The translations under genes and the position numbers were made by a program. Source: Thermoanaerobaculia bacterium (GTDB lineage Bacteria > Acidobacteriota > Thermoanaerobaculia > Gp7-AA8). From it: a DNA stretch of 61,157 nt. Positions 36,099-42,672 of this stretch are shown here, one piece after another. Numbering within the stretch: the first letter of the stretch is position 1; every line of letters begins with the position of its first letter. The stretch lies in contig JADGNY010000021.1 in NCBI GenBank assembly GCA_017883235.1, positions 1 to 61,157 on the forward strand, written 5' to 3'. Under the pieces are notes generated by a model. That model ran no database searches. It saw nothing but the letters and a program-made list of their open reading frames with translations, and had not been told where the DNA came from.

Positions 36099-36169
36099 TT
36101 AGATCGTCTCCGGATGAATTGAGGGATGGACCGATGATAGCAACGTTCTCGGAAAAGAACCGTTGACGA

Positions 36170-36258
36170 TTCCGGCGCGAAGCTGAACGTCATCGCCAAG
36201 GATTTCTCACCGCGTTCCCGTCACTTGGGCGAGGCGACAACTGATCGTCGACAGATAA
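36170..36258 (-). pseudogene. Decayed DUF5615 (PIN-like) toxin remnant
   Basis: Directly after the DUF433 stop the minus strand reads L-S-V-D-D-Q-L-S-P-R in one frame and R-L-A-Q-V-T-G-T-R-stop-E-I-L-G-D-D-V-Q-L-R in another. Joined by a frameshift this resembles the start of DUF5615 proteins (acidic D-x-Q/N-L-S-P-x-L-A opening), the usual partner of DUF433 antitoxins. The rest is gone. The call is by eye on about 30 residues. Confidence 0.4.
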
Positions 36259-36483
36259 TCACGCCACCGGCACCGGATGATCGAGGTAGCGCGACGCAAA
36301 CCGCAGACAGGCATGCAGGTCATCCGCCTCGAGATCCGGCATTTCATCAAGGATCTCGGAGGCAGACAGGCCCGCCGCGAAGAGGTCGAGAACATCGCTC
36401 ACGCGCATACGCATCCCCCGCACGCACGGCCTGCCCCCACACTGCTCGGGGTCTACCGTGATTCGATCAGCAATCTGGTTCAC
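36259..36483 (-). CDS. DUF433 antitoxin-like protein
   Basis: A 74-residue DUF433 protein: DRITVDPEQCGGRPCVRGMRMRVSDVLDLFAAGLSASEILDEMPDLEADDLHACLRFASRYLDH, essentially the complete domain with its winged-helix-like core. DUF433 proteins are VapB45-type antitoxins paired with PIN-like DUF5615 toxins encoded immediately downstream. Here only debris of such a partner is visible. It starts at GTG 36483 with TATACT six nt upstream. Confidence 0.88.
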   Translation of the reverse strand: MNQIADRITVDPEQCGGRPCVRGMRMRVSDVLDLFAAGLSASEILDEMPDLEADDLHACLRFASRYLDHPVPVA

Positions 36484-36489
36484 ACGAAA

Positions 36490-36495
36490 AGTATA
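36490..36495 (-). promoter_or_regulatory. TANNNT box (TATACT) before the DUF433 gene
   Basis: TATACT on the minus strand ends 6 nt before the GTG at 36483. Confidence 0.42.
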
Positions 36496-36704
36496 GCAGC
36501 GGCCTCCTCGGCGCTACACGACCTGAAGGCTGGACAGGCCACGACAGAGTCGCTGACGCCGTGTTCATCTCCCTCGGTACGAAGATTCACAGGTCCGGCC
36601 CCCTCTGCTTAGGGCATGCTTACGACAGCCTCACGAGGCCCGAGGCGCGGCATCGCGACAGCGGATGGCCGCTTGCCAGACTGCGCCTGCGCGAAACAAG
36701 CAAT

Positions 36705-37499
36705 CTACCCGCTTTTCACCAGGAGCGATTGAACTTGTTCGCTTGTAAGGTGCCATGGTGATGTCGTGAACCGCCGATCATCTGGTCTCTGGCCTGCACC
36801 TTTCAGCAGTACATTCTTCCAAAATTTTACAGATGCTTTCTTGTTCTTGAGTTCCCGCTTGTGGTCCCCAGCGGAGTCGAACGTCGAAAGAATTAGCATA
36901 TCTAGGCGTGAGACCTGCGGTGCGGTATCTATGTGATAGAAGTCGTTCTTTACGACACCGGCTATTAAGACAGTGTAGATACCGATCTTTAGCGACGCGT
37001 ACTCCGACGTGAACCCTTCAATCACTTCTGCGAGGTACTGATCGACAGAATCGTCAGCTATAGCGTCGATTGTCTCGGGTAGGAGGTCCTCAAACTGAAT
37101 CTTCTTGCTCAGCAGCGGAGGAATGCGGAGTCGGGTGCGATGCCGTACGATAAGGAGAGGTACGGCAAGAATTCGCGGCGAGTAGCTTTTTTCTTCCGCA
37201 TACCACTTGTCACTTGAGTCCTCGAACGAACGCCGAAGAGCATCCGCTACTACCTCCTTGACGACGGCGTTGAACTTATAACGGTCAAAGCTGAGCCGTT
37301 TCCGTACTGCCTTTAGCGCAGCCTTTTCCTGGCCCATCAGGTTATCGCGGATAGCGAAGACTGTTCGCTTGGTTTCATGCGACCAAGCCTCGATATCGTC
37401 TGGCAAACTGTGGCCTTGCTCGATATAGCGCTTTTTTGCAAGGTCGAGGAGATGCTTCTCTGCGTAGCCAAGGATCGGATCATGAAATAGGAAACCCAT
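36705..37499 (-). CDS. Unknown helical protein, 264 aa, in accessory patch
   Basis: I recognise no family. The protein is soluble and Lys/Glu-rich with lower GC codons than most neighbours. It opens MGFLFHDPILGYAEKHLLDLAKKRY, continues with charged helices (FAIRDNLMGQEKAALKAVRKRL, FNAVVKEVVADALRRSFEDS) and a strand-rich middle (RILAVPLLIVRHRTRLRIPPLL), and ends with a short helical tail. GGGAG upstream favours ATG 37499 over the TTG at 37514. It is divergent from the caspase-like gene. The codon usage suggests recent acquisition. The preceding gap 36484-36704 shows nothing recognisable beyond the DUF433 promoter. Confidence 0.65.
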   Translation of the reverse strand: MGFLFHDPILGYAEKHLLDLAKKRYIEQGHSLPDDIEAWSHETKRTVFAIRDNLMGQEKAALKAVRKRLSFDRYKFNAVVKEVVADALRRSFEDSSDKWYAEEKSYSPRILAVPLLIVRHRTRLRIPPLLSKKIQFEDLLPETIDAIADDSVDQYLAEVIEGFTSEYASLKIGIYTVLIAGVVKNDFYHIDTAPQVSRLDMLILSTFDSAGDHKRELKNKKASVKFWKNVLLKGAGQRPDDRRFTTSPWHLTSEQVQSLLVKSG

Positions 37500-37851
37500 A
37501 CGTTTCTCCCTCAACTATGGAGGGCCGTGAGAGCGCATTTCCCCTACCCTTGGAATTGCGACTGCGGTTATTTGTATCGGAGAATAGGGACTGGCTCCTT
37601 CGCACCCTCGCTCTTCGCTCGATGCTAATCCATTCAGCCGTATCGATTTACAACTTCGATGCGTCGCATGGCGTCAAGGGAAGTTCTACTGCGCAGGACA
37701 ACGAGGGATCCCGCTGCCGAGGCGCAAGGCCCGCTTCGTAGCTGGCGGATTCCTCACCGCGCTTCGCACGAAAGCCTGCCCTGAGCGAGCGTAACAAGTC
37801 GAAAGGGTCTTCGTCGGTTCGGGTGACAACGGCTAGCTCGGACCGGACGAG
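37500..37851. other. 352-bp divergent intergenic region
   Basis: Between the unknown 264-aa gene and the caspase-like gene. I see no convincing gene. A 74-codon open frame from 37517 lacks family resemblance. Around 37770-37805 a CCTGCCCTGAGCGAGCG-type sequence looks like a dispersed repeat fragment. Confidence 0.5.
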
Positions 37852-38730
37852 ATGTTACGATCGAACGAGGACGAAGACTTCGTGCATATAGTTGCGGCGC
37901 CCCGTGACGAGAACGACATCCTGGCGGAGAATCGAGCGCGGCTGTCTGCCTGGGCTCCGTCGAACGGCTGGATCTATCTCGAGTACCTCGATGTTTTTGA
38001 CCTGCTATCGCGGATCGCCGACCTACAAACAACGGCGGTTCAACTGGTTGCAGAAATCGAGATCGTGGCTCATGGAAACCCTGCGGTGTGCGATGACCTG
38101 GTGCTTGAAAACGCAACGGTCGGTGCAGAATCCCTTCGGCGAATCGCCGGAATCGCAGACACGACCGCCGTTTATCTTTCCGGCTGCAACACAGGAGTCG
38201 AGTTCAACGACGAGTGCATCGCGCGTTCATTCGCGGCGGCGTACAAAGCGCCCGTGTTCGGGTCGCGAGGGTACCTCGCCGGCACTCACGCCGAGCGGAC
38301 GGAGCACTGCGTAGCCTCCTTCGAGCTCGATGGAATCGTGTACCATTCGTATCCTGGCGCTATCGATGCAACCGGTGATCGCGCATGGAAGCGGTTTGGT
38401 CCTCGGTCGCGTTCAACCGGCGGTGAACACATGCAGATCAAAATCGCCACTTCTGGTTTTCGCCCTGTGAATCTCGCCGTCACCGAAGGGCAGGAGTTGC
38501 TGTCCGCGCTCGAGCAGGTCGTTCGCACGAAACCCGCCCAGTCGGCACGCATGCGAATGGCGCCCGATTTGACCTTCGCGATTCGGCTTGCGGATGGTGA
38601 GCACGTCTTCGAGCTGTTGGCTGGTGGTACCGTCCTGCGCGACCCGGTCACGAAGCATGTGTGGCAGTTCGAGCGAGGCCGCGAGATTCTCCAAAGCCTC
38701 CTGCCCTATCGCAAGCTGCCGGCAGCCTGA
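37852..38730 (+). CDS. Caspase-like (CHAT/DUF4347-type) putative cysteine protease
   Basis: A 292-residue protein without signal peptide. Residues 60-125 read AEIEIVAHGNP (His74), then AVYLSGCNTG (Cys112), the His-Cys dyad layout of caspase-like folds such as CHAT and DUF4347. The following KAPVFGSRGYLAGTHAE and YHSYPGAIDA complete a compact domain to about 185. The C-terminal 100 residues (IKIATSGFRPVNLAVTEGQELL...) look like a separate beta-rich module of unknown function. Catalysis is not proven. It may act with the divergent neighbour. Confidence 0.6.
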   Translation: MLRSNEDEDFVHIVAAPRDENDILAENRARLSAWAPSNGWIYLEYLDVFDLLSRIADLQTTAVQLVAEIEIVAHGNPAVCDDLVLENATVGAESLRRIAGIADTTAVYLSGCNTGVEFNDECIARSFAAAYKAPVFGSRGYLAGTHAERTEHCVASFELDGIVYHSYPGAIDATGDRAWKRFGPRSRSTGGEHMQIKIATSGFRPVNLAVTEGQELLSALEQVVRTKPAQSARMRMAPDLTFAIRLADGEHVFELLAGGTVLRDPVTKHVWQFERGREILQSLLPYRKLPAA

Positions 38731-38826
38731 CGGCTCCTCCCCCCATTTCGTCACAACTTCCTCGTAGCGCTCCACCCGCCCGTCGTTGCAGAATGCCTCC
38801 CCAAACAACCGCATCAGGGGGAAACC

Positions 38827-42390: not shown

Positions 42391-42672
42391 TCAGGACGCG
42401 GTAGCCTTCTTGCGAGCCTTCCTCGTGTTGCCCTCGATGAGTCGATCCGACGTATGGGGTTCGACATCAGCAACTTTCGAGAGGGCCGCGGCAAATTTGC
42501 CGCGTGCGCCGCGTGCGGCTCGCGCGTGCAGGTACTCCTCGCTCATCAGCGCCGACATCTTCTCGGCCACTGCCGAATTGATCAATTGATCGATCGAGAC
42601 GCCCTCTTTCTCGGCGACTTCACCGAGCTTTCGGTGCAAAGACTCCAGCAAACGCACACGCAACACGCTCAT
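42391..42672 (-). CDS. Ribbon-helix-helix / HicB-like antitoxin, orphan
   Basis: A 93-residue protein: MSVLRVRLLESLHRKLGEVAEKEGVSIDQLINSAVAEKMSALMSEEYL is an Arc/HicB-type ribbon-helix-helix DNA-binding unit, and the Lys/Arg-rich tail is unstructured. GGGAGG six nt upstream fixes the ATG at 42672. Such proteins act as antitoxins or repressors. No toxin gene is adjacent; the downstream side (below 42391) holds only the terminator of another gene. Confidence 0.85.
   Translation of the reverse strand: MSVLRVRLLESLHRKLGEVAEKEGVSIDQLINSAVAEKMSALMSEEYLHARAARGARGKFAAALSKVADVEPHTSDRLIEGNTRKARKKATAS

What the first reader, a model, noticed from the sequence alone, without database searches (positions are those of the whole stretch)
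36705..38730. Divergent pair: caspase-like protein and an unknown helical protein
The 292-aa protein shows a His74/Cys112 dyad in AHGNP and SGCNTG contexts, typical of caspase-like (CHAT, DUF4347) folds, with an extra C-terminal module. Beside it a low-GC, lysine-rich 264-aa protein of unknown type is transcribed divergently from a shared 352-bp region. Caspase-like proteases in bacteria often cleave a neighbour-encoded effector in immune or cell-death systems. The pairing here is not one I know.
Basis: inference. Interest (0 to 1): 0.6.

Follow-up and report, generated by a model that had tools for sequence, protein, structure and literature searches.

The report
Solitary caspase-like gene beside an orphan
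One gene encodes a distant relative of a known bacterial caspase-like protein family and appears to travel alone between genomes, so the unrelated gene facing it is most likely a chance neighbour rather than its partner.

Summary
Both genes are real at the stated coordinates. The 292-aa protein ("CLP") shares His74 (AHGN) and Cys112 (SGCNTG) with the one relative found (52% identity, genome G011). A profile of the two aligns with DUF4347 domains of the same phylum far above shuffled controls (54.7 against at most 18.6), His on His and Cys on Cys; with CHAT domains hardly above chance (21.9 against at most 20.1). The best fold match is Tce1, a putative cysteine-protease T6SS effector described in print as a DUF4347 protein; caspases follow, tied with unrelated folds. 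So "caspase-like" holds: a divergent DUF4347-type protein, below Pfam's cut-off, with an unclassified C-terminal module. The pairing does not hold. No relative of the 264-aa neighbour was found, in G011 (86% complete) or elsewhere. In G011 CLP sits alone between two genes that lie next to each other in G000 and G001. In G002 the interval (window 36140-38776) holds other genes. Best reading: a single-gene, mobile, probably cytosolic cysteine protease with its own C-terminal regulatory or targeting module, beside an unrelated orphan in a variable spot. Catalysis, mobility and a conflict role are inferred. New variant of a known kind; modest interest.

The parts
37852..38730 (+). CLP: 292-aa caspase-like (DUF4347-type) putative cysteine protease
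   Evidence: Open frame; 52% identical relative in G011; profile match to DUF4347 domains; codon-position pattern of a selected protein. An in-frame GTG (V11) is an alternative start.
38071..38073 (+). Putative catalytic His74 codon (AHGN)
   Evidence: Sequence; same in both rows of A1; aligns with the DUF4347 His
38185..38187 (+). Putative catalytic Cys112 codon (SGCNTG)
   Evidence: Sequence; same in both rows of A1; aligns with the DUF4347 Cys
38428..38727 (+). C-terminal module of CLP (about residues 193-292), no family assigned; boundary approximate
   Evidence: 58 of 100 residues identical to L002; only weak matches in Pfam (best E 0.18) and PDB sequences (best E 0.23); not matched to the DUF4347 set (score 10.2); model low-confidence here
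36705..37499 (-). 264-aa orphan protein, low GC, function unknown; judged an unrelated neighbour
   Evidence: Open frame; no family (one PHROG line at E 0.35); no relatives (in one search the listed phage matches are at E 0.4); composition
37500..37851 (.). 352-bp divergent intergenic region
   Evidence: Coordinates; no sigma-70-like site
36140..38776 (.). Stretch without similarity to the same-genus genome G002, whose TonB-type receptor and M16 genes flank it as here; holds both genes
   Evidence: blastn against L031 ends at window 36139 and resumes at 38777; other genes there in G002

Best explanation
CLP is a divergent, stand-alone, probably cytosolic member of the DUF4347-type branch of caspase-like proteins. 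Residues about 10-140 form the alpha/beta domain with the His74/Cys112 dyad; the last 100 residues are a separate module. It most likely acts as a cysteine protease held in check or aimed by its own C-terminal module, as a single-gene accessory (conflict or stress) function that moves between genomes on its own. The facing 264-aa gene was acquired separately into the same variable spot and is not its substrate or regulator. Shown: the dyad and its presence in both homologues, the DUF4347 relationship, solo occurrence at another site in G011, no detectable copy of either gene in the other relatives searched, low third-position GC. Inferred: proteolytic activity, cytosolic location (no signal sequence by eye, no tool), regulation by the C-terminal module, mobility rather than repeated loss, conflict role.
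For: The dyad is the same in both homologues. DUF4347 is the only Pfam line of the relative at E up to 10: E 0.0059, 16.8 bits, over the His-to-Cys stretch. hhalign of A1 with 10 DUF4347 domains (of 11 matches) scores 54.7, E 1e-7; 20 column shuffles reach at most 18.6, reversed 9.3. CHAT scores 21.9, 20 shuffles up to 20.1. The first fold match is Tce1, 9qpe_G, Z 8.5; PMC8262886 section 7 says PA0256 contains a DUF4347 domain and is toxic when expressed in E. coli; PMC13323088 passages identify Tce1 with PA0256 and give it a putative Cys/His dyad. In G011 CLP lies between a PHP-associated gene and a 492-aa gene; in G000 and G001 the matches to those two genes are only about 10 and 45 bases apart. 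Third-position GC: CLP 0.678, partner 0.572, flanking receptor 0.833 and M16 0.825.
Against: The window protein itself matches no Pfam, NCBIfam, PADLOC or PHROGs family at E up to 1, and its residues 1-193 alone match nothing in Pfam at E up to 10. The PF14252 genome searches did not pick out CLP in G000 nor its relative in G011. The link thus rests on one sub-threshold hit plus a profile comparison with a set I assembled. The model is weak (mean pLDDT 53); caspase matches (Z up to 6.8) tie with unrelated folds, and the tool notes that a best Z of 7-8 is usual for models without a clear match. Tce1 gave no pronounced growth inhibition in yeast. Many caspase homologues are inactive (recalled). 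Only one relative was found, so 'mobile' rests on two genomes; loss elsewhere is not excluded.
Confidence: 0.55

Rival explanations
1. Two-gene system: CLP cleaves, or is inhibited by, the divergently encoded 264-aa protein (protease with effector, substrate or immunity protein).
For: Head-to-head with a shared 352-bp region; both genes in one stretch without similarity to G002; both of lower GC3 than the flanking genes; a separate protein substrate of a caspase-like protease is known elsewhere (TPR-CHAT and Csx30, start of an abstract).
Against: The relative in G011 has other neighbours and G011, 86% complete, has no match to the partner. The two genes differ in GC3 (0.678 against 0.572). No relative of the partner was found in any collection searched.
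Confidence: 0.08
2. CLP is a secreted or injected effector like the T6SS cargo Tce1.
For: First fold match is Tce1, itself said to contain a DUF4347 domain; G011 has an Hcp.
Against: G000 has no match to Hcp family PF05638. The flanking genes are a TonB-type receptor and an M16 peptidase in the window, a PHP-associated gene and an unassigned 492-aa gene in G011. Other Hcp types, VgrG, PAAR and other contractile systems were not searched for.
Confidence: 0.12
3. CLP is a catalytically dead caspase-fold protein that works as a binding or scaffold domain.
For: No activity is shown; substrate-pocket residues cannot be judged from a low-confidence model.
Against: Both dyad residues and their glycines are kept at 52% identity and align with those of DUF4347 domains.
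Confidence: 0.2
4. The region is a decayed stretch and one or both frames are non-functional.
For: The partner has no relatives and no family.
Against: Selected-protein codon pattern for CLP, and for the partner a frame longer than any in 500 shuffles; uneven GC over the partner's codon positions (0.60, 0.36, 0.57) and a ribosome-binding-like stretch.
Confidence: 0.05

Closest known systems
DUF4347 (Pfam PF14252)
   Same: His-Gly and Gly-Cys motifs in the same order; profile score 54.7 against at most 18.6 in 20 shuffles; the match lies in the N-terminal part (54.6 for that part alone).
   Different: Below the Pfam cut-off (relative 16.8 bits against 24.6; window protein no hit); has a C-terminal module matched to no family.
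Tce1 / PA0256, putative cysteine-protease T6SS effector of Pseudomonas aeruginosa
   Same: First structural match, Z 8.5, rmsd 3.7 over 131 residues; said in print to contain DUF4347 and a Cys/His dyad.
   Different: 14% identity over the alignment; its extra part is N-terminal, CLP's is C-terminal; G000 has no PF05638 Hcp.
Small solitary DUF4347 proteins of another genus in the same phylum (L096, L097, L098; 184 aa each)
   Same: Stand-alone caspase-like domain over or near the Pfam cut-off.
   Different: No C-terminal module; same surroundings in the three genomes looked at, unlike CLP.
CHAT proteases (PF12770)
   Same: The His and Cys motifs align in order.
   Different: Score 21.9 against shuffles up to 20.1, so hardly above chance.

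Membership tests
DUF4347 (PF14252) | Score over the curated gathering cut-off | tested here: not met
   Window protein: no hit at E up to 1, residues 1-193 none at E up to 10; relative: 16.8 bits against 24.6; neither picked out by the family search of genomes
DUF4347 (PF14252) | Profile-level homology across the His-Cys core | tested here: met
   hhalign 54.7, E 1e-7, with 10 domains (9 over the cut-off); 20 shuffles at most 18.6, reversed 9.3
Caspase-like fold (clan CD) | HG and (A/G)C dyad motifs just after successive strands (motif rule recalled) | tested here: met
   H74 and C112 in both rows, just after strands 65-72 and 101-110 of the model
Caspase-like fold (clan CD) | Structural match to solved caspases above unrelated folds | tested here: inconclusive
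   Caspases at Z up to 6.8, tied with a periplasmic binding protein (6.8) and near receiver domains (6.2)
Caspase-like fold (clan CD) | Cysteine-dependent proteolysis | not testable with these tools
   Needs an assay with C112A
CHAT (PF12770) | Profile-level homology clearly above chance | tested here: not met
   Score 21.9 against shuffle maximum 20.1; no Pfam hit
Known anti-phage defence systems (PADLOC) | Match to a PADLOC model | tested here: not met
   Neither protein at E up to 1
Protease-effector gene pair | Linkage of the two families in other genomes | tested here: not met
   The 1 other CLP locus found has other neighbours; partner matched only the own genome in 60 relatives and 396 phylum genomes
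T6SS Hcp cargo | Hcp present in the genome | tested here: not met
   PF05638: none in G000 or G002, one each in G001 and G011; other Hcp types not tested

The most novel reading that the evidence does not exclude
A two-gene conflict system newly assembled in this one genome: a horizontally moving single-gene caspase-like protease that has taken the divergently encoded orphan as its substrate or inhibitor. In weaker form, CLP founds a class of one-gene, self-regulated caspase-like toxins in which the C-terminal 100-residue module is the built-in switch.
Probability: 0.07. Interest if true: 0.6.

Novelty: new variant of a known kind. Interest (0 to 1): 0.28.

Why it matters
DUF4347 is carried by a putative T6SS effector but is otherwise little described: four papers of the library searched hold the word. 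A stand-alone, apparently mobile, two-module relative makes it testable whether such domains are proteases with a built-in switch. It also shows that neighbouring genes in a variable spot need not form a system.

Tried and rejected
Family libraries (Pfam, NCBIfam, PADLOC, PHROGs) gave nothing at E up to 1 for either window protein except one PHROG line for the partner (E 0.35). PDB sequences gave nothing for CLP, for the CLP profile, or for the partner.

Two weak CLP matches in the class search (G061, E 1.5e-4; G081, E 8.6e-4) were checked and rejected: both lie antisense to long frames, with stops inside, and a local tblastn did not reproduce the second at that place. For the partner, 71 phage records matched at E up to 1; the 20 listed are at E 0.4 over residues 18-88, in a place annotated in some as DNA primase; treated as chance. 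So are 4 plasmid records matching CLP at E 0.4-0.7. CLP had no phage match at E up to 0.1 and the partner no plasmid match at E up to 1. The search for related loci found no relative of CLP or partner in genome contigs and viral contigs, nor of the C-terminal module in viral contigs; that method needs exact peptide patterns, so a miss is weak evidence. No metagenome scan was available.

The DUF4347 family search of the class gave 13 of 147 genomes at E up to 0.01, none over the cut-off, and neither CLP nor its relative among them; the three non-G000 class matches that I extracted (L034-L036) showed no HG...C pattern in the printed stretch and were not used. In one search, 11 matches in 10 of 396 genomes; I used 10 and dropped one partial match (L057). 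CHAT as the family was tested and set aside. T6SS cargo was tested by Hcp PF05638 only. The partner's structure could not be predicted beyond its N-terminal helices, so no fold search was run on it. No co-complex prediction was available. Papers: PMC13323088 seen as passages, PMC8262886 as one passage and section 7 in full; the rest only as listings and starts of abstracts.

Full report
What is there. The two frames are as described. CLP is 292 aa at 37852-38730 (+); the facing gene is 264 aa at 36705-37499 (-); the gap is 352 bp. Both are probably real genes. CLP differs from its relative mostly at third codon positions (0.37, 0.25, 0.60 over 288 codons), and the partner's frame is longer than any in 500 mononucleotide shuffles of the region (269 against at most 232). 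The partner also has a purine-rich stretch just before its ATG.

Relatives. Of 148 genomes searched in the class (own genome included), 4 had a match to CLP at E up to 0.001: the window itself, G011 (52% identity), and two weak matches that proved to be antisense noise. With the two-row profile, 1 of 396 genomes across the phylum, the own one, matched; this sample overlaps the class sample. The partner matched only the own genome among 60 relatives and 396 phylum genomes. Plasmids, phages, viral contigs and the species genome set added no credible relative of either. I take the phylum to be Acidobacteriota from gene content, which is recall and not a tool result.

What CLP is. No curated library names it, and its residues 1-193 alone match nothing in Pfam at E up to 10. 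The G011 protein has one Pfam line, DUF4347, at E 0.0059 over the His-to-Cys stretch, under the cut-off. The DUF4347 search of whole genomes did not pick out either. I therefore took DUF4347 matches from the phylum (11 matches in 10 of 396 genomes; 10 used, a partial one dropped; nine of the 10 are over the cut-off) and compared profiles. The score was 54.7 with E 1e-7; the reversed control scored 9.3 and 20 column shuffles at most 18.6. His74 and Cys112 fall on the DUF4347 His and Cys. Against 19 CHAT domains (of 24 loci tried, 30 fetched, 63 matches in 6 genomes) the score was 21.9, with 20 shuffles up to 20.1. So CLP is a divergent DUF4347-type protein, outside the curated family limit, and not a CHAT protein.

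Fold. The AlphaFold2 model from two sequences is fair for residues about 11-130 (block means 60-85) and poor beyond about 140 (mean pLDDT 53). Its first match is Tce1 bound in Hcp3 (9qpe_G; Foldseek E 0.0016, TM 0.33 by query; VIA Z 8.5, rmsd 3.7, 131 residues). Caspases come next at Z up to 6.8, but tie with unrelated folds, and the tool notes that a best Z of 7-8 is usual without a clear match. The fold evidence alone is middling. It gains weight because PMC8262886 section 7 says that PA0256 contains a DUF4347 domain and lowers survival when expressed in E. coli, and PMC13323088 identifies Tce1 with PA0256 and aligns its His and Cys with a known cysteine-protease dyad, while reporting no pronounced effect of Tce1 in yeast (passages). 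Sequence and fold thus point the same way.

The C-terminal module. Residues 193-292 are 58% identical to the relative (58 of 100), against 48% (90 of 188) for the rest. They match nothing in Pfam or PDB sequences beyond weak lines (best E 0.18 and 0.23), nor the DUF4347 or CHAT sets, and the model is not reliable there.

Does the pair hold? In G011, CLP lies between a PHP-associated gene on the same strand and a 492-aa gene on the other. In G000 and G001 the matches to these two genes are about 10 and 45 bases apart; G002, G009 and G016 have the PHP gene without the second gene in the stretch held. So CLP occurs as a single gene at a site that is unoccupied in two other genomes, one of them the window's own. 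In the window it lies elsewhere, between a TonB-type receptor gene and an M16 peptidase gene. In G002 the same receptor and peptidase genes flank different genes, a 262-aa protein and a Uma2 protein, and similarity ends at window 36139 and resumes at 38777. In G001 the receptor and peptidase are on different contigs. The spot is variable. Third-position GC is 0.678 for CLP, 0.572 for the partner, 0.833 for the receptor and 0.825 for the peptidase, so both look acquired, and not obviously from one donor. One other locus is a small sample, G011 is 86% complete, and joint acquisition in this genome is not excluded.

How it probably works. A caspase-like domain with an intact dyad and, by eye, no signal sequence most likely cleaves proteins in the cytosol, and the linked, well-conserved module is the natural candidate for control or target choice. 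Patchy single-gene distribution fits an accessory conflict or stress function. These steps are inference. A T6SS-cargo role as for Tce1 is less likely here, because the genome has no PF05638 Hcp, though other Hcp types and contractile systems were not tested. No sign of a defence island was seen: 0 of 10 other window frames that I chose from the 113 matched PADLOC.

Verdict. The caspase-like call is right and can be sharpened to DUF4347-type. The pair is probably chance. New variant of a known kind, modest interest.

Noticed in passing
L096:4124-4675, L097:3821-4372, L098:3842-4393: A 184-aa solitary DUF4347 gene (54-69% identical between genomes) keeps the same surroundings in three genomes of one genus of the phylum: a convergent gene of about 300 aa, then two genes that I recognise from memory as groES and groEL. 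Three of the five genomes of that genus with a match were looked at. A fixed site suggests a resident role for some DUF4347 proteins.
   Followed up: partly
L099:1386-6684: In the window's own genome (contig C24) a 1059-aa CHAT protein is followed by a 358-aa gene and, on the other strand, a 310-aa protein with a lipoprotein-like start (by eye) and a weak DUF4347 match (18.4 bits).
   Followed up: no
G000 (whole genome): Eleven CHAT (PF12770) matches in the window's genome and 5-16 in each of five relatives, some of them short pieces: CHAT proteins are common in this lineage.
   Followed up: no
window 42391-42672: A 93-aa minus-strand frame matches the HicB family weakly but over its cut-off (24.6 against 21 bits).
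   Followed up: no
window 36140-38776; L031:4089-5828: The interval between the TonB-type receptor and M16 genes holds different genes in two genomes of one genus, and the two flanking genes are on different contigs in a third: a variable spot worth mapping.
   Followed up: partly
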